DNA of 64,000 bases, taken from contig QCHF01000001.1 in the NCBI GenBank assembly GCA_003279605.1, forward strand, positions 214,075 through 278,074. Reading direction: 5' to 3'. Shown in pieces: positions 21,401-33,006 of the stretch. Origin of the DNA: SAR86 cluster bacterium AG-390-O18 (GTDB taxonomy: Bacteria; Pseudomonadota; Gammaproteobacteria; Magnimaribacterales; AG-339-G14). The notes beneath the pieces are model-generated. The model had not been told where the DNA came from and made no database searches. It worked only from the letters and a program-made list of their open reading frames with translations. Position numbers and translations under genes: made by a program. Within the stretch, counting starts at the first letter, position 1. Each line of letters starts with the position of its first letter.

Positions 21401-22138
21401 TTAACTATTATTTTCCCAGTGAAATTTTGGTAGTTTTTTAACTCCCTTGTCTATTTGTTTAGCCCAAATATCAGATAATTCTTTAAAGAAAGGGGAATCT
21501 AGTTTTAATTGCTCTTGAAAATTTAGGTTTATTTGATTTTTTTTAAAGACAATTAAATCAATTGGAGGCCCAACTGTTAAGTCTGACCTCATTGTCGAAT
21601 CAAGAGATAGAAGAGCAACTCTAGCTGCATCTCCTATGGATATGTCAGGATGAATCATCCTATCTAAAATAGGCTTTCCATATTTAGTTTCTCCAATTTG
21701 CATATAAGGTTGCTCATCTGACATATATATATGATTTCCTTCTGGATAAACCAGCATTAAATTAGGCTCTTGACCTTTAATTTGTCCTCCTACAATGAAA
21801 TGAGAACCTAAAATGATACTATTTTGAGATGGATTTTCATTAGCTACTGACTGATATTCAACATTCAACTCTCCTACATAAGCAGCTACATCATCTAAAT
21901 CTTCACAGGTATTTAAACTCCTTGATACATCTTCTGATGTTAAATCTTTCTCTATCCGATGATAAACAGCTTGTGAAGTTGCAAGATTTCCAGAAGTTAA
22001 GATAACAAAAGCTCTATCACCAACATTAAAAGTAAACATTTTTGAATAAGTACTGACATTATCTAAACCAGCATTAGTTCTGGAGTCAGAAGCGAAGACT
22101 AATCCTTCTTCTATTTTGATTGCTACACAATAGGTCAT
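21401..22138 (-). CDS. Anbu-type proteasome-like peptidase
   Basis: Bacterial proteasome homologue of the Anbu (BPH) family, an Ntn-hydrolase related to HslV. The 245 residues begin MTYCVAIKIEEGLVFASDSR, where Thr2 becomes the N-terminal nucleophile after removal of Met. Later blocks TSGNLATSQAV and ISIGDAARVALLSLDSTMRS are typical. In other bacteria Anbu genes sit beside circularly permuted ATP-grasp, Alpha-E and transglutaminase genes (the peptide-amidoligase context of Iyer and colleagues). The first two are here on the opposite strand, starting 35 bases away; the transglutaminase is not. Substrate unknown. Confidence 0.88.
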   Translation of the reverse strand: MTYCVAIKIEEGLVFASDSRTNAGLDNVSTYSKMFTFNVGDRAFVILTSGNLATSQAVYHRIEKDLTSEDVSRSLNTCEDLDDVAAYVGELNVEYQSVANENPSQNSIILGSHFIVGGQIKGQEPNLMLVYPEGNHIYMSDEQPYMQIGETKYGKPILDRMIHPDISIGDAARVALLSLDSTMRSDLTVGPPIDLIVFKKNQINLNFQEQLKLDSPFFKELSDIWAKQIDKGVKKLPKFHWENNS

Positions 22139-22173
22139 CTTGGGCTATAAATTGGACCTCAATAATATTATAG

Positions 22174-23655
22174 ATGAATGTTATATTGAGTTTTGTTAAA
22201 TATACAAATAACAATATGAAATTAAAGTGGTCGAATTATGAATTGGCTAAGTCTTTTGACGAATATATAAATTCTGAAAATAAAGTACGAGCTCATATCA
22301 GAAAAATTGGTAACTTTTTTGAATCCTTATCTCTAACAGAGCTTCAAGAACTTAATAGTTCTGCCGAATCCGCAATCAAATCTCTCGGTATTAATTTTCG
22401 TGTTTATTCTGATACAGGCTCAGAGGAAAGGAGTTGGCCTTTGGATTTTATTCCCAGAATTATCAAAAAAAAGGAATGGGAAGAAGTAAGTAAAGGACTT
22501 ATTCAAAGAACAAAGGCATTAAATTTGTTCATAGAAGATTGCTACAACGAACAAAAGTTCTTAAAACAAAGTTCAATGAATGAAGATCTTATACTTAAAT
22601 CAAAAGCATATTTTTCTTTTTGTAAAAACGTAAAGTTACCTAATTCAGCTTGGTCTCATATTTGCGGTTCGGATTTGATAAAAGATATAAAGGGTAATTT
22701 TCACGTCCTAGAAGATAATTTAAGAATACCCTCAGGGGTTTCATATATGCTTGAAAATAGATATGTTATGAAAAGAGTTTTTCCTGATCTTTTTTCTCAT
22801 TACGGAGTATCTAGAATTGATGAATATCCTCTTCGTTTGTATGAAACGCTTTTAGATTCATGCTTTGGAAAAACTAAGTCCCCAGAAATAGTTTTACTTA
22901 CTCCTGGAATTTATAACTCAGCTTATTATGAACATTCTTATCTGGCTCAACAGATGGGAATAGATTTAGTAGAGGGAAGGGATCTGATTGTAAAAAATGG
23001 ATTTGTTTACAAAAAAACAATAGAAGGCTTATCAAAAATTGATGTGATCTACCGAAGGGTAGACGATGCTTTTTTAGATCCTGAAGTTGGAAATCCAAAA
23101 AGCGTTCTTGGAGTCAAGGGATTAATCAAATGTTGGAAAAATAAAACAGTATCTATCGTTAATGCGCCTGGATGTGGTATCGCGGACGATAAAGCAGTGT
23201 ATAGATACGTTCCAGAAATGATCAACTTTTATTTGGATGAGGAATGCATTCTTCCCAATATTAAAACTTATCTTATGAGTAATAAGAAAGATAGAAATTA
23301 TGTTTTTCAGAATATTAAAAAAATGGTCATAAAGCCTGTCGCTGAAGCAGGAGGTTATGGAATAGTTATTGGTAAAACCTTAAACAATGAAACAGAAGAA
23401 GAGATTAAAAAAAAGGTTTTAGGAAATACAAAAAATTATGTCGCTCAACCATTAATTGATCTATCCACAACACCAACTTTTAGTAGAAATGAAATTTCTC
23501 CACGTCACTTAGATTTAAGACCCTTCATCCTTTCAGGAAAAAAAACTTACGTAACAGTGGGCGGATTAACCAGAGTAGCATTAAAAAAAGGATCAACTGT
23601 CGTTAATTCTTCCCAAGGAGGAGGCAGCAAAGATACTTGGATAGTTGAAACATAA
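22174..23655 (+). CDS. Circularly permuted ATP-grasp family protein
   Basis: Predicted peptide-bond-forming ligase (493 residues from the first ATG; a second in-frame ATG at 22216 would give 479, and neither has a clear ribosome site). Blocks seen: PRIIKKKEWEEVSKGLIQR near 89-107, ENRYVMKRVFPDLF, GRDLIVKNGFVYKK, VIYRRVDDAFLDPE, VKPVAEAGGYG-like IKPVAEAGGYGIVIG (ATP-binding loop) and LDLRPFILSG near the C-terminus. It overlaps the Alpha-E gene by one base (TAATG). The family is thought to make or attach peptide tags; that role is inferred from genome context, not shown here. Confidence 0.87.
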   Translation: MNVILSFVKYTNNNMKLKWSNYELAKSFDEYINSENKVRAHIRKIGNFFESLSLTELQELNSSAESAIKSLGINFRVYSDTGSEERSWPLDFIPRIIKKKEWEEVSKGLIQRTKALNLFIEDCYNEQKFLKQSSMNEDLILKSKAYFSFCKNVKLPNSAWSHICGSDLIKDIKGNFHVLEDNLRIPSGVSYMLENRYVMKRVFPDLFSHYGVSRIDEYPLRLYETLLDSCFGKTKSPEIVLLTPGIYNSAYYEHSYLAQQMGIDLVEGRDLIVKNGFVYKKTIEGLSKIDVIYRRVDDAFLDPEVGNPKSVLGVKGLIKCWKNKTVSIVNAPGCGIADDKAVYRYVPEMINFYLDEECILPNIKTYLMSNKKDRNYVFQNIKKMVIKPVAEAGGYGIVIGKTLNNETEEEIKKKVLGNTKNYVAQPLIDLSTTPTFSRNEISPRHLDLRPFILSGKKTYVTVGGLTRVALKKGSTVVNSSQGGGSKDTWIVET

Positions 23656-24566
23656 TGTTAAGTAGAAGTGCCAAACATCTTTACTGGTTAGCTAGATATA
23701 TTGAACGAACTGAAAATATAGCTAGGATGATAGACGTTAATTTAGAATTAATTCTAGATTACCCCGTAGATCATTCACTCAACTGGAAACCATTAATCGA
23801 TACTCTAGATGCAAATCAATACTATGAAAATAAATACAAGAAATATAACGAAGATAATGTTTTAAATTTTCTTTTTGAAGGAAATAATAATACTAGCTCA
23901 TTAAAAAATTGTCTGGACATGGCTAAATATAATATTGAAACCGTTAGGGATGATTTACCAAAATCTGCAAGCATCAGTTTGAACCATCTTCATGATCATA
24001 TCTTCAATGTAACTTATTTAAAGATCCACAAAAGAAAAAGGTTACCTTACATAACAAATATAGTAGATCTTACCCAAGAATTTTTTAGTTCTATAAATGA
24101 TAATCTTTCGAGGGGATATGAATTTGAATTTATAAGATTAGGTAGATTTTTAGAGAGAATTGATATGATATCGAGAATCATAGATTGTCTATGTATTACG
24201 AAAAGCGATAAAAAGACCTATGATTTTTCTACAATGGAGTGGATAAGTTTGTTATCAATTTTGTCTGCTCAAGACGCATTTAGGAAGGTCTCGAAAGGAG
24301 AGGTTGATAGAGAAGAAGTAATAAATTTTCTCTTACAAGATGATAGTTTTCCTAGATCAATAACAAGATGCCTTTCAGTATTAAGACTTTGTTTAGACAA
24401 CCTCCCTAAAAATGAAAAGATAATCCTTAAGTTAAGAACATTAAGACTAAGATTTGATACAGCCTCATTTGAAAACTTTGATGATAATAAATTACATACA
24501 TTCCTAGATAGGTGTCAAAAGGATCTTATTTCAATAGATAAGCTAGTAGAAAAAACATATTTTTAA
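23655..24566 (+). CDS. Alpha-E domain protein
   Basis: A 303-residue, almost entirely helical protein of the Alpha-E family. The N-terminus MLSRSAKHLYWLARYIERTE and the later FEFIRLGRFLERIDMISRI are the paired conserved helices with the Glu and Arg residues that name the family. It always accompanies circularly permuted ATP-grasp ligases, here translationally coupled by a one-base overlap, and may be a partner or second catalytic component. No biochemical function is established to my knowledge. Confidence 0.87.
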   Translation: MLSRSAKHLYWLARYIERTENIARMIDVNLELILDYPVDHSLNWKPLIDTLDANQYYENKYKKYNEDNVLNFLFEGNNNTSSLKNCLDMAKYNIETVRDDLPKSASISLNHLHDHIFNVTYLKIHKRKRLPYITNIVDLTQEFFSSINDNLSRGYEFEFIRLGRFLERIDMISRIIDCLCITKSDKKTYDFSTMEWISLLSILSAQDAFRKVSKGEVDREEVINFLLQDDSFPRSITRCLSVLRLCLDNLPKNEKIILKLRTLRLRFDTASFENFDDNKLHTFLDRCQKDLISIDKLVEKTYF

Positions 24567-24639
24567 TCATTTTATGGATAGGGAAGGCCCTTAAGCTTAA
24601 TAAATATCGTATATTAATGTTCGTATAATATATATTATG

Positions 24640-25191
24640 TTAAATTAAATAAAGGACAAAGGCATACGTATTAATAACAAAAACACCCAAGATAGCTTGA
24701 AGATTTCTGTCTATTTCATATTTTTTTCCTAAAATTTTAATAAAAACTGGTGGTACTCCATTAATATCATTGAGTTCTCCATCAAATAGTTTTAAGCCGA
24801 TGGCTGTTGCCAAAAAAGAAAAAATCCATAGATAGTTCAACAATATAACAATCAAATGCATTAATGGAGAATAGAAAAACCACATCAAAACAAGTGATAA
24901 TAATGCATTGATTATCATTGCGTTTACTTGCCAAACTAAGTGAAAACGAGCATGCCCAGTCCAAAGAGGATTTGTAGCATGAGATTCATTAAAATCTATT
25001 AAGGGAGTAATCGTTCCAAATCCTATGCAGATTAGTGTTAATAAGATCTTCGATATAAATAAGATTTCAAATTCTGTAAACAAAATTGCATAAACAGACC
25101 AAATTAAAGATAAACCTATTAAAATTCCAAAATATTCCTGAGCTTTTAACGCAAAATTGAAAGCCTTACTTCTTTGATTTGGATCAAACAT
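24640..25191 (-). CDS. Five-helix membrane protein, unknown function
   Basis: A 183-residue protein with about five membrane spans and the conserved-looking hydrophilic segment HATNPLWTGHARFHLVWQV, rich in His, Trp and Arg, between spans 2 and 3. That segment recalls a family of small bacterial membrane proteins that I cannot name with certainty. It is divergent from the LinB-like dehalogenase gene (67 bases apart), so the two may share regulation. The 73 bases between it and the convergent Alpha-E gene are AT-rich and show no convincing terminator. Confidence 0.7.
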   Translation of the reverse strand: MFDPNQRSKAFNFALKAQEYFGILIGLSLIWSVYAILFTEFEILFISKILLTLICIGFGTITPLIDFNESHATNPLWTGHARFHLVWQVNAMIINALLSLVLMWFFYSPLMHLIVILLNYLWIFSFLATAIGLKLFDGELNDINGVPPVFIKILGKKYEIDRNLQAILGVFVINTYAFVLYLI

Positions 25192-25258
25192 TTACTCTTT
25201 AAAATTTTTATTTCATTAATAATATATAATTTAATTATCTTATAAGGAGAAAAGAATA

Positions 25259-26116
25259 ATGACAAAGAAATATAAGGAAATTTTAGGAAAACAAGTGGCT
25301 TATCTTGATGAAGGCTCAGGACAATCAATAGTTTTTCTTCATGGAAATCCAGCCTCTTCTTTTTTGTGGAGAAATATTACTCCTTTTGTTAAAGATCTAG
25401 GAAGAGTTGTTGTTCCAGATTTAATTGGAATGGGCGATTCTGAAAAACTTGAAGGAATAGATAATCCTGATTATCAATACCATGGACAATACAAATATCT
25501 ATCTTCATTACTAGATGAATTAGATTTAGGTGAAGAAATTAATTTAGTTATACATGATTGGGGTTCTGCAATGGGATTTCATTATGCAAGAGAAAATGCT
25601 AATAAAATAAAATCGATTACTTTTATGGAGGCAATCGTAATGCCACTAACTTGGGATCAATGGCCAGAAAATGCAAGAAACATTTTTCAACTAATGCGTT
25701 CAGATGTAGGAGAAGAAATTGTTCTTGAAAAAAATATTTTTGTAGAAAAAATCCTCTTAAATGATTCTGCGGATGGTTTTACCGATGAAGAAAAGGCTGA
25801 ATACATTCGTCCCTTTAAAAATGCAGGTGAAGATCGTCGCCCTACTCTTACTTGGCCAAGACAAATTCCTGTAGACGGTTCTCCTCAGGCTGTAATTGAT
25901 GAAGTAATAAAGAATGGAGAATTTCATAAAGATTCAAATATCCCGAAACTTTTCATTAATGCCGATCCTGGAAGCATTCTTGTTGGCGAACAAAGAGAAT
26001 TTGTTCGAAGCTGGAAAAACTTGCAAGAAGTAACTGTGAAAGGAAATCATTTTATTCAAGAACATTCTCCCAATGAAATAGGAACAGCTATAAAAGATTT
26101 TTTAGATTCTTTGTAA
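25259..26116 (+). CDS. Haloalkane dehalogenase, subfamily II (LinB/DhaA-like)
   Basis: Hydrolyses haloalkanes to alcohol and halide. The 285 residues align end to end with LinB as I remember it, and every catalytic residue is present: halide-binding Asn30 (FLHGNPASS) and Trp101, nucleophile Asp100 (VIHDWGSAMGF), catalytic acid Glu124 (FMEAIVMPL) and His264 (GNHFIQEHSP). The cap region RRPTLTWPRQIP is also typical. No signal peptide. It is preceded by AAGGAG (25244-25249) and a TATAAT (25225-25230) without a good -35. Activity as a true dehalogenase is likely; substrate range is unknown. Confidence 0.92.
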   Translation: MTKKYKEILGKQVAYLDEGSGQSIVFLHGNPASSFLWRNITPFVKDLGRVVVPDLIGMGDSEKLEGIDNPDYQYHGQYKYLSSLLDELDLGEEINLVIHDWGSAMGFHYARENANKIKSITFMEAIVMPLTWDQWPENARNIFQLMRSDVGEEIVLEKNIFVEKILLNDSADGFTDEEKAEYIRPFKNAGEDRRPTLTWPRQIPVDGSPQAVIDEVIKNGEFHKDSNIPKLFINADPGSILVGEQREFVRSWKNLQEVTVKGNHFIQEHSPNEIGTAIKDFLDSL

Positions 26117-26120
26117 AAAA

Positions 26121-29100
26121 TTAATTAGCCCAAGAATGAAATGGACAACCATTAGCTGAAGTATCTGATTTATCTTTTATTCCATCCACTACACATGGAT
26201 TGGCATTATTTAAGACATTTGTAGGTTCAGCACCAATAGAGTTAGAACTAGAACCATTATAAGGACTTACATCTCTTAAAATTGAATCGCTTTGAATAGT
26301 AGCTGAATTATCATAAGGAATATCAGAAATGCCACCACCAATTAACTCTAAAGCTACGGCTTTGTCCATTGGTAATAAATATACTTGCCCTTTAAGAGGC
26401 CTTATTTTATAAATATTACCAGTTCCTACTTCTGTAACTTCTTGACCTGGATAAATTTGAAATCTATCTACATTCCTATGAGTTGCTGTCCAGGCTCCTC
26501 CAGCGGTAACCTTAGTACCTGTACCAATGTCATATCTATCATGAGGAATACCTCTTATTCTATTTCCATCTCCCTCAAAATATAATCTATATTTCTTACC
26601 ATGTTCAGATGTCGGATAATTTGAAGTTGCCGGAATCGTTAAAATTAATACTTTAGGTGGATCAAAACTTACAACAGAATTTCCTTCCATTAAATTATAA
26701 GTTGGGGCAACTCTTAGCTTTAATGAGTAATATTCCTCAACAGAACCATCAAATATTTTTGAAAAACAGTATCTTTTTTCTTGTGATTGAGCTTGATTCC
26801 ACCCTGGTCTATATTCGTATTCATTATTTGCATTGCCAAAATCGTTAAAAGTTTTAGTGCATTCCGCTTTATCCAATTCTTGTTGAGTCATCATCAAACC
26901 ACCTTGGAGACCCCAGCCTACCGGAATGGTGCCTTTCCAATGAGAAGACCTAGCACCAGTCAAATAAGTATTAAGGTTAGCTTGTGCGGCAACTGAATTT
27001 TTATTGGTTGCATTAAAAGTTAATTCATCTGCACCAACAAAGACTGTATTATTGGAAATGGTATATGTTATTTTTTCACTATCTCTGATTCCATCCTGAT
27101 AAGTATTTACAGCATTATTTTTTGTGTAATCAACAGTAGAATCATGATTCCAATCATATTCAAGAGCTCCAGATCCATTAACTTCAGAAGATTTAATATA
27201 TGGTCCAACATTATAATAAGGGCTAGAAAAAGGACTTCTGTTTGCGTTTCCTGAAATACTTGTTTTTTCCCAACTTTGATTCGCATCAGATTTTATTGCT
27301 GCAGCAGCAGTAAAAATAGATTCATAAGAAGAATTTACTGCACTTGGTGACATACATCTTGCTATACAGTAAAGATTTGTAGGCATGGATGTTAACGGTA
27401 CACTTTGAATGAGGATATTTCTTACTCCATTGGCCTTCAAATTAGAACTAGGATTTGCTAGAGAATTTCTTTTTATTCTTAGTATCTTTTTTGTATCAAT
27501 ATTCAGTAAAACCATGCTTTTTACATGCGTATAAGCTCCAAAGGTTTTAGCCATATTAGAAATCCATTGACTATTCTCAAATTGAATTACATCAGATCCA
27601 GTTAAAACTGTATAAGAACAGTTATCTGCATTACAAACTGCGGATACATTAAATACAAAACCCCCTACTGTATTTGCGTCTCCATCCAAACCATTAAGTG
27701 TTGAATCGTAATAACCCACGTATTCTTTTTTAAAAGTACAGTTATTATTATTTTTGTCTTTATTGTCTATGCCGCAGAATCCTAGATTTTTAAATTCGGT
27801 ATTCCAATAAGGATCTTGTACCCACATAAGTACTCTGTGTTTGTTATATTCACTTAAACTTCTATAACTAATATTAATTTTTTTAGCAGTAAGAAAGTTT
27901 TGATTTACGGTGTACGATTTAGCTTTTTCAAGAGCCGTTGCATTAGGATTGTTGTTTCGCCAAATAGTGTTATTTGAAATATAGTTTTTGTATTTGTGAT
28001 CTAACCAAACCCCATTAGGACCTGCATAAGCATACATTTGATTATTTGGAAAATCATTTGTTCCAGATGCTGTTGCAGTTATGGAAAAGGCTTTGTTAGT
28101 TAAATCAACTTTTGCTCCGCTAGAATCATAAAGTCGATAGTGATCTACTACTCTTAAAGCTGTAGCAGGATTTACATCAAAACATTTTTCATCAATTCCA
28201 TATCCTGGATCAATGTAATTTGTTTTTATCCAAGCAGTAAAATCATTAACACCAGCTATTATACTAGATACATCTGATAGTTTTCTGGGTCCAGCTTTAT
28301 TACCAGCACCTAACCAATCGTATACGCTTCCTTTATCTGCCCCAACAGTAGGAGCAATGTATTCCAACATATTTGCGTATTCATATTTTTGACAATAAAC
28401 CCTTTTTGAGGTGTCTATATAAAATCGATAACCAAGACTCCAAGGCCAACCGTTCCCAGAAATTGTAGGTCTAAAAATTTCAAAAAGACCTTTAGAAACT
28501 GTACCAGTTGATGTCAGAGTTAAGTTATATGAATCACTACCAGAATTAGCAACATAGTTAATAGTAGAATCATTTATTTCAACTCTACCCATTCCAGTAG
28601 TTTTATTTATAGCAGATGCTCCGCTTAAACCCAAAAACTCCCATAAAGGTTCGATACCAGTCCAATCCTTTGGATTTGTAATTGTAAAGTCTAAAGTAAG
28701 GTTTCCGTATTTTGTACAGTCTGTTCCTTCAACCATACCAGCAGCTAATCTAGCAGCTGTGCATGGAAGTTTTGAGATTGTGAAATCATAAAAGAAAGAA
28801 GTTGGTGGCCTATTTCTATAGTCAGTACTTCCAGAATTAACATTAGACCAAATTTTTGCTTTTAATGGAGCAGTCAATGATGCTTTTGTTACATCAAATA
28901 TTGCATTGTTATAATTTACATCTGTAAAAGAATTTATCTCAGATTCTTCTTGAGTTTCAACACTACTAGTTGTTCTTGATGAATCTGTAGCACTTGAGCT
29001 TTCGCCAAATTTTTTAGTACACAAATCACTTCTTGTAAGAACTTTGTATGGACCTTTATTTAGCAATGCCCCTCTAGATATACCATTACTAACAAAACAC

Positions 29101-29231
29101 ATAAAACGATTCACGGTAGACAATGCTGTATTTAAGTCTTGGCCTTGAACATAGAAGTCAGTTTCATCATTTGCGAAATCTGAGGCAATTAAATTAAGCG
29201 GAAACAATAATATAAGAAATAATTTTTTCAT
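26121..29231 (-). CDS. Giant exported protein, copy B (paralogue of 29456-32410), unknown function
   Basis: A 1036-residue protein with a signal peptide (residues 1-16, ending NLIAS). It is rich in Asn, Ser, Thr and Gly, has no membrane spans after the signal, and looks like a beta-rich extracellular or cell-surface protein. It is a diverged paralogue of the 984-residue protein upstream; both share an N-terminal FYVQGQDLN / YYVPGILAN segment with two cysteines, a YCQK motif, LYCIARCM versus LLCIREC, an EF-hand-like DxNxD segment (YDWNHDSTVDY), and a C-terminal KKYRLYFEGDG / KKFKLKFEGYG block. It starts 8 bases after a 44-residue lipoprotein gene with no clear ribosome site, suggesting coupling. 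I recognise no known domain. Confidence 0.85.
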   Translation of the reverse strand: MKKLFLILLFPLNLIASDFANDETDFYVQGQDLNTALSTVNRFMCFVSNGISRGALLNKGPYKVLTRSDLCTKKFGESSSATDSSRTTSSVETQEESEINSFTDVNYNNAIFDVTKASLTAPLKAKIWSNVNSGSTDYRNRPPTSFFYDFTISKLPCTAARLAAGMVEGTDCTKYGNLTLDFTITNPKDWTGIEPLWEFLGLSGASAINKTTGMGRVEINDSTINYVANSGSDSYNLTLTSTGTVSKGLFEIFRPTISGNGWPWSLGYRFYIDTSKRVYCQKYEYANMLEYIAPTVGADKGSVYDWLGAGNKAGPRKLSDVSSIIAGVNDFTAWIKTNYIDPGYGIDEKCFDVNPATALRVVDHYRLYDSSGAKVDLTNKAFSITATASGTNDFPNNQMYAYAGPNGVWLDHKYKNYISNNTIWRNNNPNATALEKAKSYTVNQNFLTAKKINISYRSLSEYNKHRVLMWVQDPYWNTEFKNLGFCGIDNKDKNNNNCTFKKEYVGYYDSTLNGLDGDANTVGGFVFNVSAVCNADNCSYTVLTGSDVIQFENSQWISNMAKTFGAYTHVKSMVLLNIDTKKILRIKRNSLANPSSNLKANGVRNILIQSVPLTSMPTNLYCIARCMSPSAVNSSYESIFTAAAAIKSDANQSWEKTSISGNANRSPFSSPYYNVGPYIKSSEVNGSGALEYDWNHDSTVDYTKNNAVNTYQDGIRDSEKITYTISNNTVFVGADELTFNATNKNSVAAQANLNTYLTGARSSHWKGTIPVGWGLQGGLMMTQQELDKAECTKTFNDFGNANNEYEYRPGWNQAQSQEKRYCFSKIFDGSVEEYYSLKLRVAPTYNLMEGNSVVSFDPPKVLILTIPATSNYPTSEHGKKYRLYFEGDGNRIRGIPHDRYDIGTGTKVTAGGAWTATHRNVDRFQIYPGQEVTEVGTGNIYKIRPLKGQVYLLPMDKAVALELIGGGISDIPYDNSATIQSDSILRDVSPYNGSSSNSIGAEPTNVLNNANPCVVDGIKDKSDTSANGCPFHSWAN

Positions 29232-29239
29232 TTTTTTAT

Positions 29240-29374
29240 TTAATCAATATTCAATGGTTCAATTGCTTCTATATCTCCCTCAAGTCCGGTTATAGGAGGT
29301 GCTGAGTTATTAGAACCCGAGCCACAAGAGATAAAAAGAAGTATAAATACGGAAAGAATTAAGACGTTTTTCAT
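29240..29374 (-). CDS. Tiny lipoprotein paired with the giant exported protein B
   Basis: A 44-residue reading frame beginning MKNVLILSVFILLFISCGSG. It has a hydrophobic signal segment and a lipobox-like FISC ending at Cys17. The residue after Cys is Gly, not Asp, which favours outer-membrane sorting. The mature part is only 28 residues, ending in an acidic IEAIEPLNID. A weak GGTGA ribosome site lies upstream. Its pairing with the giant gene 8 bases downstream repeats the arrangement at 32594-29456, which supports it being real. Confidence 0.65.
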   Translation of the reverse strand: MKNVLILSVFILLFISCGSGSNNSAPPITGLEGDIEAIEPLNID

Positions 29375-29403
29375 AAGATCACCAAAGATTATCTTTATTC
29401 TTT

Positions 29404-29440
29404 AAAAAAAACTCCCTTGAGTCAAGGGAGTTTTTTTTTT
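29404..29440. terminator. Bidirectional intrinsic terminator between the two giant-protein cassettes
   Basis: Nine-base stem ACTCCCTTG / CAAGGGAGT (29411-29419 and 29423-29431) with a 3-base loop, flanked by a run of seven A before and ten T after, so it has a U-tract whichever way it is transcribed. It lies just after the stop of the 984-residue gene and before the small lipoprotein gene, and separates the two cassettes into distinct transcripts. On the minus strand TTGACT inside the hairpin is 17 bases from AAGAAT, a possible weak promoter for the second cassette. Confidence 0.85.
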
Positions 29441-29455
29441 CTCATTAGAACCTTT

Positions 29456-32410
29456 TTAATTTGAAGGAGGTGTATGCACTGTTTTTCCGTGAATTACTGA
29501 AGGATCTGTGCTGTTTGCACTTGGTAATGTTGTTGCAGGCACAGTACCAATGGAATTTGTTCCAGAAAATAAGTTCTGAATATTACTTGCAGGTGGTAGA
29601 TCGCTCGCTAACTTAGAGTAATTTACTCCAGCAGGAATGGCTCCTAATTTAAGTAAATATTCATCCCCTCTTAGAGCTCTGATTTTTAAGTCATCTCCCC
29701 CACTTAGGTTAGTAAGAACGGTAGCATCAGGTATTACAAATTCATGTACATATCGGTAACACTGGTTCCATCCACCATCAACATATCTACCTAAAATAGC
29801 GCCTGTACAGGTATTTACTACTCGTCCAGGAATATTATGCAGCTCTCCGTAACCTTCAAATTTCAGTTTGAATTTTTTTCCAGCAAGATCTGTGTTAGGA
29901 AAGTTGTAAGTTATTCCATTTGCAGGGACAGTAAATAAAACTGATTGCGGTGGCGAGACATTAACATATTGACTAGAAGTATCGTTATACAGTCTATAGT
30001 CAGGCATTTGTCTAACTCTGATATCATACATCGTCGCAACTGCTCCTTCCCACATTTTGTAGTCACAATAATAAGAGGTTGCTCCGGTAGCATGAACTGC
30101 TGCATCATTTGCTTTAGCTTTAAACTTAACATCGTAACCCCTTGCATTACCACCTGAAACATCGCAATGAAGAGCTGCTTTATTAGTATCTGAATTAATC
30201 ACAGCTCTCATATGGAAAGCATGACCAAAGTTATTTGTCCAATTATTACCGTAAGTATGAGGCTTCATGTAATAACGATAATTTTGTAATGAGTCGCCAT
30301 GCTGTCTAGCATCTACTTTTTGTCCATTTGCAAGAGAATATTCTATGTAAGTATTTCCTGCAGTACCGTCTCTGAGTTTATTGGTTCCAGCAACATTCAC
30401 AATTGTATATTGAGGAGCATCAGCAACTTTTATTCCGCCAATATTATTATAGTTACCAGCTGCAATATCTGACTCTCCCCCATCTTGGTCACCATTACCA
30501 TTTGAGTCGTAATAAACTGTAGCTGTCCACCAGTCTCCTACATTTTTGTAAGGAGTAACGTTTAAAGCTCCTGGATTACTTGAATTTTGAACTGCAGTAA
30601 AAGCTGCATCAATAGCAGTATTTATATTAGAGGCATCAAGACATTCTCGAATGCAAAGTAAACCTGTTGCATTGTCGCCAGTATTAGTTATTTCTGTTGC
30701 CAATTGATCGATATTTATTCTTTCTTCTGTTCTTGTTCTAACTTGAGAGGAAGGCGTTGTTGAGTCAGGGTCACCAAAAGCAGCAAAAGGCACTGTGTAA
30801 CTTTGATGAGAATCGGGATCCCAAAAATGCATCCTTCTATTCCACCCTGAGTCAGTCATTTGCTGTGTCCAATTTACCGCCGTAAATGAGAAAGAATTAT
30901 CCAATTCAAAAGGCATTATTCTTGCTCCCCAATCCATTCCATGAGTTACAGTAAAAGTTACAGTAGAGCCACTCACAGTAATTGTTCCAGAGTATTCAGG
31001 ACAGTGACCTTGTGCAGCATTACAATTACCGGCATTCGGAAAATTAAGATTTCCTAGCTTTGTTTGAAAAGTACTTCCGTCTCTGAAATTATTTGCATAA
31101 AACTGAAAAGAAACTCCACCAAGTTGGTCTAATGAAAGATACTGACGAGTTCTTTTTACAATTTCATAGTAATTTTTTCTTAAATTGTATGAATTGTTAT
31201 CGCTGGAATTTCTTTTATTTTTAAATACAGTTGAGTCAGCTACATTTACCCTATCAGTAGGATTAACATGCACTCCCCAATAGCTGGCATGAGACCAAAT
31301 TGGAGCAGAAAGTGAACCATTATCTGTAGTATTTGCTTCCAAGGACATGGAAGGAGTAGTTAAATCTGCTCTTGAACCATTAGAATTTTTATAAGTACCG
31401 TACTCATAAACAACTCTTTTCGCTGCAGACCTTCTAGTATCCCAGCAATGTTCCCCAGTTATAGTGGCTGCTGTTCCTCCATCAGTATCAACAAATCCCC
31501 CTCCGTTTTGAGCATTGGTTATAGCCGTTGCTAGATTAGTTTCAGAGATTGCTGCACCTTCTGTCCAGAGACCATTACCCCCTTGGGTATATTCATTAGC
31601 ACTAAAAAATTTTTGGCAGTATCTATCTGCCCCTTCATTAACTTGTACTTGATGTGTGACAGCATAAGTTGTCATTCCTCCGCCACCGGCGATACGAAGA
31701 AGTGTTTGCATAAATCCTTGAATATTGTTGGCATCAGCCAAGTCCGCAATAATTACTCTGTCTGGACCTTGCATGCCTGTTTCACGATACTGGATAGTGG
31801 TGTTATTAACGCTTAAATAACCTTTATTTATCGATATACCAGCTGTGGAAAGTCCAAGTGCGTTGTGAATTTGTTTATTTCTAAGATCATATCGCATGGT
31901 AAAAGTTCCAAAACGATTGGTGCTGCTTTTATCTGCAGATACCTTTGTAGATAAATAGGCAGTTGTTGGAACTACGGTATCGTTTTGGCCCATTTGCAAT
32001 TCAATATCCACCCAGCCTTTTCCTTGTACTTCATTTCCAGAAGTTTCCCCTGTATAAATGCCAGTGGTATATTCAGTAGCGTCAACAGTATTTCCTGTTC
32101 CAGCTCCACCACCGCTAGCTGATGAACCTGTTGCAGATGCTGCTTCAGAAGCCGCATCAGCACCGCTTGCAGACTCACACTTAGCTTCGTCAGTTAAAGC
32201 CTTATAAACTCCTTTATTCACAAAAGTAGAAAAATTAATACTCTCCATAAAACATAAGAGAAAATTAACTTGGCTCATTGCATCATTAGCAAGTATGCCA
32301 GGTACGTAATAATCTACTTCTGCAGCATCATCAGTGTAGTCGTCTGTAAAAGTTAAATTAGCAAACAATATAAAAGTAAAAGTTGTATAAAACAGCGTTA
32401 TCGATTTCAT
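29456..32410 (-). CDS. Giant exported protein, copy A (paralogue of 26121-29231), unknown function
   Basis: A 984-residue protein with an N-terminal signal peptide (about residues 1-22) and no later membrane span. A low-complexity Ala/Ser/Gly linker (about 80-110) separates a short N-terminal cysteine-containing segment from the main beta-rich body. The body has RYCQKFFSANEY, an EF-hand-like calcium-loop candidate (DSNGNGDQDGGESD), LLCIREC and a C-terminal KKFKLKFEGYGELHNIPG block, all with counterparts in the 1036-residue paralogue. An AAGGAA site precedes the ATG, 19 bases after the stop of a 54-residue lipoprotein gene. A surface or adhesive role would fit the composition but is a guess. 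Confidence 0.85.
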   Translation of the reverse strand: MKSITLFYTTFTFILFANLTFTDDYTDDAAEVDYYVPGILANDAMSQVNFLLCFMESINFSTFVNKGVYKALTDEAKCESASGADAASEAASATGSSASGGGAGTGNTVDATEYTTGIYTGETSGNEVQGKGWVDIELQMGQNDTVVPTTAYLSTKVSADKSSTNRFGTFTMRYDLRNKQIHNALGLSTAGISINKGYLSVNNTTIQYRETGMQGPDRVIIADLADANNIQGFMQTLLRIAGGGGMTTYAVTHQVQVNEGADRYCQKFFSANEYTQGGNGLWTEGAAISETNLATAITNAQNGGGFVDTDGGTAATITGEHCWDTRRSAAKRVVYEYGTYKNSNGSRADLTTPSMSLEANTTDNGSLSAPIWSHASYWGVHVNPTDRVNVADSTVFKNKRNSSDNNSYNLRKNYYEIVKRTRQYLSLDQLGGVSFQFYANNFRDGSTFQTKLGNLNFPNAGNCNAAQGHCPEYSGTITVSGSTVTFTVTHGMDWGARIMPFELDNSFSFTAVNWTQQMTDSGWNRRMHFWDPDSHQSYTVPFAAFGDPDSTTPSSQVRTRTEERINIDQLATEITNTGDNATGLLCIRECLDASNINTAIDAAFTAVQNSSNPGALNVTPYKNVGDWWTATVYYDSNGNGDQDGGESDIAAGNYNNIGGIKVADAPQYTIVNVAGTNKLRDGTAGNTYIEYSLANGQKVDARQHGDSLQNYRYYMKPHTYGNNWTNNFGHAFHMRAVINSDTNKAALHCDVSGGNARGYDVKFKAKANDAAVHATGATSYYCDYKMWEGAVATMYDIRVRQMPDYRLYNDTSSQYVNVSPPQSVLFTVPANGITYNFPNTDLAGKKFKLKFEGYGELHNIPGRVVNTCTGAILGRYVDGGWNQCYRYVHEFVIPDATVLTNLSGGDDLKIRALRGDEYLLKLGAIPAGVNYSKLASDLPPASNIQNLFSGTNSIGTVPATTLPSANSTDPSVIHGKTVHTPPSN

Positions 32411-32429
32411 TTTAAATTCCTTAGTTTAA

Positions 32430-32594
32430 TTAGTCTGTTGTTTGTACAGGATCTACCTGACCTGCAAAGTTACCTGTTGGTGTGCTTCCATAAGAGTTAG
32501 TGTTGGAATTGGTGTTAGAGCCACCATATCCTCCACCGCCACCACAACTTATTAGCAAAATTGATAGCGTGAAAATTGTAAATAATTTATCCAT
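32430..32594 (-). CDS. Tiny lipoprotein paired with the giant exported protein A
   Basis: A 54-residue lipoprotein, MDKLFTIFTLSILLISCGGG, with a good lipobox LISC at Cys17 followed by a glycine run and an Asn/Thr/Ser-rich tail. The start at 32594 is chosen because AAGGAG (complement of 32605-32610) sits ten bases upstream; an in-frame upstream start at 32672 would give a non-signal N-terminus. It opens the transcript that contains the 984-residue protein. The mature tail contains NSYGSTP, reminiscent of NSIGTVP and NSIGAEP near the ends of the giant proteins. Confidence 0.8.
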   Translation of the reverse strand: MDKLFTIFTLSILLISCGGGGGYGGSNTNSNTNSYGSTPTGNFAGQVDPVQTTD

Positions 32595-32619
32595 AAATAT
32601 GTGTCTCCTTTGTAATTTA

Positions 32620-32647
32620 TTTATACTATTTTTTCTTGATCTTGCAA
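32620..32647 (-). promoter_or_regulatory. Candidate promoter of lipoprotein/giant cassette A
   Basis: On the minus strand TTGCAA (32647-32642) is separated by 16 bases from TATAAA (32625-32620), 25 bases before the lipoprotein start codon. The match is moderate (4/6 and 5/6). Confidence 0.45.
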
Positions 32648-32655
32648 ATATTTTT

Positions 32656-32763
32656 TTAAACAAAATAGTCAACTATTGCAGCGATTATTGCTAAAAATAT
32701 ATTGACAATTACTATTACCAATAACAGTCCTTTCAAATTAAATTTTTTATCTTTCTTCTCCAT
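32656..32763 (-). CDS. Possible 35-residue single-span membrane protein
   Basis: Reading frame beginning MEKKDKKFNLKG followed by an unbroken hydrophobic helix (LLLVIVIVNIFLAIIAAIV) and a short tail DYFV. A basic N-terminus followed by one transmembrane helix is typical of small membrane proteins. No ribosome site is evident and the frame is short, so it could be chance. It is divergent from infA, 24 bases away. Confidence 0.35.
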   Translation of the reverse strand: MEKKDKKFNLKGLLLVIVIVNIFLAIIAAIVDYFV

Positions 32764-32787
32764 AAGGCATAATTATGGACAATATTT

Positions 32788-33006
32788 ATGGCAAAAGAAG
32801 ATTTAATTGAGATGTCAGGCGAGGTTATCGATACCATGCCAAATACTACCTTCAAAGTAAAATTAGAAAATGATCATGTCATTACCGCTCACATTTCAGG
32901 AAAAATGAGAAAAAATTACATTCGAATTCTTACTGGGGATAAAGTTAAAGTTGAAATGACCCCTTATGATTTATCCAAAGGCAGAATAACCTTTAGAGAA
33001 AAATAA
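32788..33006 (+). CDS. infA: Translation initiation factor IF-1
   Basis: 72-residue S1/OB-fold protein that binds the ribosomal A site during initiation. Sequence [20 protein letters not shown], then [19 protein letters not shown], matches bacterial IF-1 at full length. It converges with clpA (2 bases between stop codons), the same arrangement as in E. coli and Pseudomonas. Confidence 0.97.

What the first reader, a model, noticed from the sequence alone, without database searches (positions are those of the whole stretch)
26121..32594. Tandem two-gene cassettes: tiny lipoprotein plus roughly 1000-residue exported protein, seemingly undescribed
Seen: two consecutive cassettes on the minus strand, each with a 44-54-residue lipoprotein (lipidated Cys17 in both, ISCG in both) directly followed (19 and 8 bases) by a giant signal-peptide protein. 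The giant proteins are paralogues with matching cysteine, YCQK and FEG(D/Y)G blocks, yet too diverged for a recent duplication. A bidirectional terminator separates the cassettes. Known: I recognise no domain in either giant. Inference: a co-evolved surface pair, the lipoprotein acting as outer-membrane anchor, chaperone or secretion aid for the giant. This is my best candidate for an undescribed system.
Basis: partly seen in the sequence, partly recalled or inferred. Interest (0 to 1): 0.75.

Follow-up and report, generated by a model that had tools for sequence, protein, structure and literature searches.

The report
Split lipoprotein anchoring giant exported protein
Marine SAR86 bacteria carry an undescribed family of roughly 1000-residue exported proteins, each made together with a tiny lipid-anchored partner that probably holds it to the cell envelope; distant relatives make anchor and protein as one chain, so the pair looks like a single lipoprotein split into two genes.

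Summary
In detail: two cassettes, each a 54- or 44-residue lipoprotein (Cys17) followed after 19 or 8 bases by a 984- or 1036-residue exported protein. The genome is a SAR86 bacterium. The pair is a real, conserved unit: 54 of 56 informative homologues in the SAR86 order have a lipoprotein ORF immediately upstream (counted by hand). That lipoprotein varies from 44 to 888 residues, some with cupredoxin-like or bacterial-Ig domains, but nearly always ends in one short tail motif, about [LV]P-x-x-[IV]-[DE]-x-[VI]-[ET].

The SAR86 pair is therefore best read as a split lipoprotein whose lipid anchor and docking strand are encoded apart from the body. In sampled own-genome DNA no other lipoprotein bears the tail.

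No library (Pfam, NCBIfam, PHROGs, PDB sequences, Foldseek) recognises the giant. An AlphaFold2 run on a stop-read-through fusion did not place the tail, so physical docking is inferred, not shown. What the body does remains unknown.

The parts
32430..32594 (-). Lipoprotein 2 (54 aa): signal peptide with lipobox Cys17, Gly/Ser/Asn linker, C-terminal tail
   Evidence: orthologues
32433..32474 (-). Conserved tail of lipoprotein 2, GNFAGQVDPVQTTD
   Evidence: motif model; last 12 codons in six orthologues: 55 synonymous against 8 non-synonymous pairwise differences
29456..32410 (-). Giant 2 (984 aa): Sec-type signal peptide, eight invariant Cys, mostly beta body, conserved C-terminal PSVIHGKTV
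29404..29438 (.). 16-pair hairpin between the cassettes, terminator-like on both strands
29240..29374 (-). Lipoprotein 1 (44 aa): lipobox Cys17, short linker, tail
29243..29287 (-). Tail of lipoprotein 1, GLEGDIEAIEPLNID
   Evidence: motif model (13.7 bits); no differences in the tail codons against L098
26121..29231 (-). Giant 1 (1036 aa): diverged paralogue of giant 2 with the same eight Cys

Best explanation
Each cassette encodes a split lipoprotein. The small protein is exported and lipidated on Cys17; its Gly/Ser-rich stretch is a flexible leash, and its last 10-15 residues are a docking strand that completes the fold of, or clamps onto, the giant body, which is exported by its own signal peptide and stabilised by disulfides. 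The giant is thereby held to the membrane, most likely the outer membrane (no Asp at +2), without being lipidated itself. Shown: conserved adjacency, lipobox, conserved tail, fused counterparts. Inferred: physical docking, strand geometry, outer-membrane or surface location. The function of the body is unknown; an envelope or surface structural, binding or adhesion role is my guess only.
For: 1) Adjacency: 54 of 56 informative SAR86-order homologues, bodies about 780-2450 aa, have a lipoprotein-type ORF directly upstream. 2) The lipoprotein can be 44-92 aa, about 160-180 aa with a cupredoxin-like insert (my reading; no Pfam hit), or 349-888 aa (one with Big_9/cadherin), yet nearly all end in the same tail. 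3) Fusions: at least 13 homologues in other Gammaproteobacteria read Cys-linker-motif-linker-body in one chain, e.g. CGGGG..GVVLPSEMSVVTS; a motif model built only from split tails scores in them, combined shuffle p 3.5e-9, related sequences so not independent. 4) Fused and split forms interconverted: at least 3 changes on the tree, 2 forced by starred branches. 5) The tail is no general lipoprotein signal: of 15 lipoproteins in 464 kb of the own genome only the two cassette ones bear it, 24.6 and 13.7 against 3.1 bits for the next. 6) The tail is under purifying selection, 55 synonymous against 8 non-synonymous differences, while the linker drifts.
Against: AlphaFold2 on a read-through fusion of lipoprotein and giant left the tail at pLDDT about 25 without secondary structure; the alignment there was shallow and a signal peptide lay between, so I count this as inconclusive. 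Two SAR86 giants (L088, L091) and one short homologue (L164) have no upstream lipoprotein, so the partner can be lost. Four long fused proteins of another class (L168-L171) show no tail motif by pattern. Two SAR86 tails fit the motif model only weakly or out of register (L105b, L080). In several fused chains the motif match alone is not significant.
Confidence: 0.62

Rival explanations
1. The lipoprotein is an assembly or folding factor, as LptM is for LptD: it binds the cysteine-rich giant during maturation through the tail, and anchoring is secondary.
For: Giants have eight invariant cysteines; LptM is a small lipoprotein that promotes oxidative maturation of LptD (PMC10567701).
Against: In fused homologues anchor, motif and body form one permanent chain, which fits a stoichiometric subunit better than a catalyst. 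No outer-membrane barrel fold was recognised with confidence.
Confidence: 0.17
2. The tail is a sorting or surface-export signal read by an export machine, for instance the type II secretion system, and not a contact with the giant.
For: The tail is short and C-terminal; the genome encodes a GspD secretin; in one distant genome the body gene lies behind what reads like a gsp operon (L164).
Against: No other lipoprotein sampled in the genome has the tail; in fused forms the motif is internal; GspD also occurs in relatives without giants.
Confidence: 0.1
3. The giant is an outer-membrane beta-barrel and the lipoprotein a plug or accessory subunit, as LptE is for LptD.
For: The model has a long antiparallel meander (residues 114-288), and the second-look alignment lists BtuB, FhuA, AlgE and LptD (Z up to 7.8).
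Against: Those Z-scores are at the level the tool calls background; Foldseek found nothing at E 0.001 or better. The chain ends without the usual C-terminal aromatic beta-signal, and fused homologues are N-terminally lipidated.
Confidence: 0.08

Closest known systems
VirB7-VirB9 (TraN-TraO) of type IV secretion systems
   Same: A 45-65-residue lipoprotein whose short segment after the lipidated Cys winds around a larger partner's beta-sandwich and adds a strand; needed for partner stability; the Xanthomonas VirB7 carries an extra domain (PMC3093366).
   Different: Here the conserved segment is mostly C-terminal, the partner is a 780-2450-residue stand-alone protein with no secretion genes recognised beside it in the window, and fused single-chain forms exist.
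LptM/LptE with LptD
   Same: A small lipoprotein pairs with a large disulfide-bonded outer-membrane protein.
   Different: LptD is a barrel with known families; no such family or confident fold is found here.
Donor-strand complementation in chaperone-usher pili
   Same: The inferred idea that a strand supplied by another chain completes a beta fold.
   Different: No chaperone or usher seen next to the cassettes; the FimA hit is 14.7 bits against a cut-off of 30.

Membership tests
VirB7/VirB9 (type IV secretion) | Short lipoprotein of 45-65 residues with lipobox next to a larger exported partner | tested here: met
VirB7/VirB9 (type IV secretion) | Partner matches a known VirB9 family | tested here: not met
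   Pfam and NCBIfam show no such hit for either giant
VirB7/VirB9 (type IV secretion) | Other virB genes nearby | not tested
   Only flanking genes at 21401-33006 were scanned: proteasome-type, ATP-grasp, Alpha-E, hydrolase, IF-1
Type 1 fimbrial subunit (FimA) | Match above Pfam gathering score | tested here: not met
   14.7 bits against cut-off 30
LptM/LptE-LptD-like | Giant is an outer-membrane beta-barrel | tested here: inconclusive
LptM/LptE-LptD-like | Conserved disulfide-forming cysteines in the large partner | tested here: met
   Eight invariant Cys over 41 members; bonds themselves not tested
Lipoprotein with separate anchor (split lipoprotein, proposed here) | Single-chain homologue with lipobox, motif and body | tested here: met
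Lipoprotein with separate anchor (split lipoprotein, proposed here) | Tail physically docks on the body | tested here: inconclusive
   Tail unplaced in AlphaFold2 read-through fusion

The most novel reading that the evidence does not exclude
A modular surface-display system in which a lipoprotein was repeatedly divided into a separately encoded lipid anchor plus docking strand and a giant body, so that different anchor modules (bare linker, cupredoxin-like, Ig/cadherin) can be paired with different bodies in tandem arrays, each pair insulated by its own tail.
Probability: 0.35. Interest if true: 0.75.

Novelty: new variant of a known kind. Interest (0 to 1): 0.6.

Why it matters
SAR86 is an abundant, uncultured surface-ocean lineage with genomes near 1.2 Mb, yet some of its members spend several kilobases on tandem copies of this pair. 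A protein family absent from the libraries searched, with a testable docking rule, would add a named component to the SAR86 cell envelope, and the fused/split comparison gives a natural experiment on how a lipid anchor can be outsourced to a separate gene.

Tried and rejected
Pfam, NCBIfam, PHROGs and PDB-sequence searches of the giants: nothing above cut-off. Foldseek against PDB and viral models: no match at E 0.001 or better; VIA-align second look: best Z 7.9, at background level. AlphaFold2 of the lipoprotein-giant read-through fusion: tail not placed. tblastn of a distant split homologue against plasmids: no match. Paper searches for SAR86 with lipoprotein or metaproteome gave nothing whose title or abstract concerns this family; none of those papers was opened. 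Gene neighbourhoods of distant homologues were listed as ORFs only, without a family scan of the neighbours, and by eye show no constant partner other than the lipoprotein. The idea that the tail is a general lipoprotein signal was dropped.

Full report
Observation. Lipoproteins of 54 and 44 residues, both with Cys17 in ISCG, precede proteins of 984 and 1036 residues by 19 and 8 bases. The two giants align over their whole length at 23% identity, E 7e-35. A hairpin at 29404-29438 lies between the cassettes.

Where it is from. The window lies in a 1.28 Mb assembly of three contigs. All 19 loci found with the giant-2 alignment in named genomes are SAR86 cluster or, in one case, an unnamed gammaproteobacterium MAG.

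The family. Searches of 61 relatives found the giants in 28 (giant 2) and 17 (giant 1) genomes, often in arrays of two to four; with a family alignment, 41 of 203 genomes of the order have it. Eight cysteines are invariant over 41 full-length members. On the tree the giant-1 and giant-2 types fall in separate, well-supported clades, so the duplication is old. No library recognises them.

The lipoprotein. I counted by hand, from the upstream listings SAR86-order homologues whose upstream side could be read; 54 have a lipoprotein-type ORF directly upstream. In some of these the lipobox is cut by a contig end or was not matched by my pattern, and the call rests on the tail. The two exceptions are one paralogue type (L088, L091). 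The lipoproteins range from 44 to 888 residues. Those of about 160-180 residues hold what I read as a cupredoxin-like domain, though Pfam gives no hit; one of 591 residues holds a Big_9/cadherin match. What they share is the last 10-15 residues.

The tail. A motif search over 36 tails gives the consensus LPGQIDVVETQ, with the strongest columns at P, Q, I, V and E; two tails (L105b, L080) were placed out of register by it. Among six orthologues of lipoprotein 2 the last 12 codons show 55 synonymous and 8 non-synonymous pairwise differences, while the linker cannot be aligned. In 464 kb of the own genome (the window plus 400 kb of sampled stretches), 15 ORFs look like lipoproteins and only the two cassette ones carry the tail.

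The fusions. Class- and phylum-wide searches found shorter homologues. In many of these the body is itself a lipoprotein and the motif follows the lipidated Cys and a Gly/Ser linker, then a second linker leads to the body. Others (L150, L156, L163, L167) keep a small separate lipoprotein 9-14 bases upstream or overlapping. Scanning 13 fused N-termini with the model from split tails gives a combined shuffle p of 3.5e-9; the sequences are related, so this is not a strict probability, and individually about half are not significant. Split and fused states change at least three times on the tree, two of them forced by starred branches. Four long fused proteins of another class lack the motif by pattern.

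Interpretation. Because the motif is kept both at the end of a separate lipoprotein and inside a single chain, I infer that it is a structural element of the body, and that in the split form it docks back, so that the lipid holds the giant. This step is inference. AlphaFold2 gave a fair model of giant 2 (pLDDT 79.4, pTM 0.58, mostly beta), but a read-through fusion of lipoprotein and giant from a relative left the tail at pLDDT about 25. The last residues of the giant, with invariant V972 and G975, are also below pLDDT 50, which could mean they need a partner; that is speculation. No fold match was found.

Known things it resembles. VirB7-VirB9 is the closest in working: a short lipoprotein segment winds around a beta-sandwich and adds a strand (PMC3093366). 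LptM and LptE with LptD are a second parallel (PMC10567701). Membership in either is not claimed. The genome has a GspD secretin, so type II secretion of the giant is possible, but nothing links the two directly.

Limits. The paper searches were by title, abstract and term counts; apart from passages of the VirB7 paper I opened none. Neighbours of the distant homologues were listed as ORFs and not scanned against family libraries; family scans of neighbours cover the genes flanking the cassettes in the window and a few proteins beside SAR86 giants in relatives.

Noticed in passing
L066:3247-4980(-), L069:1987-3693(-), L080:6471-8165(+): Lipoproteins of about 570 residues lie downstream of the giants in several SAR86 genomes; they contain HEYFH (HExxH, metallopeptidase-like) and end in a region with a weak plastocyanin-type match in two of them.
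   Followed up: partly
window 21401-24566: Proteasome-type protease, circularly permuted ATP-grasp and Alpha-E genes side by side, resembling the known Anbu-type cluster.
   Followed up: partly
L071:914-2638(-), L101:14202-15926(+): A 574-residue protein with a weak match to the giant family (E about 4e-9), concentrated at the N-terminus by eye, near the giant in one SAR86 genus.
   Followed up: no
L164:1378-7043(-): A 513-residue homologue follows genes that read like a gsp (type II secretion) operon and precedes two near-duplicate lipoproteins of about 600 residues; no family scan was run on these neighbours.
   Followed up: no
L125:5837-13198(+): A 2453-residue member of the family with cadherin domains inserted.
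   Followed up: no
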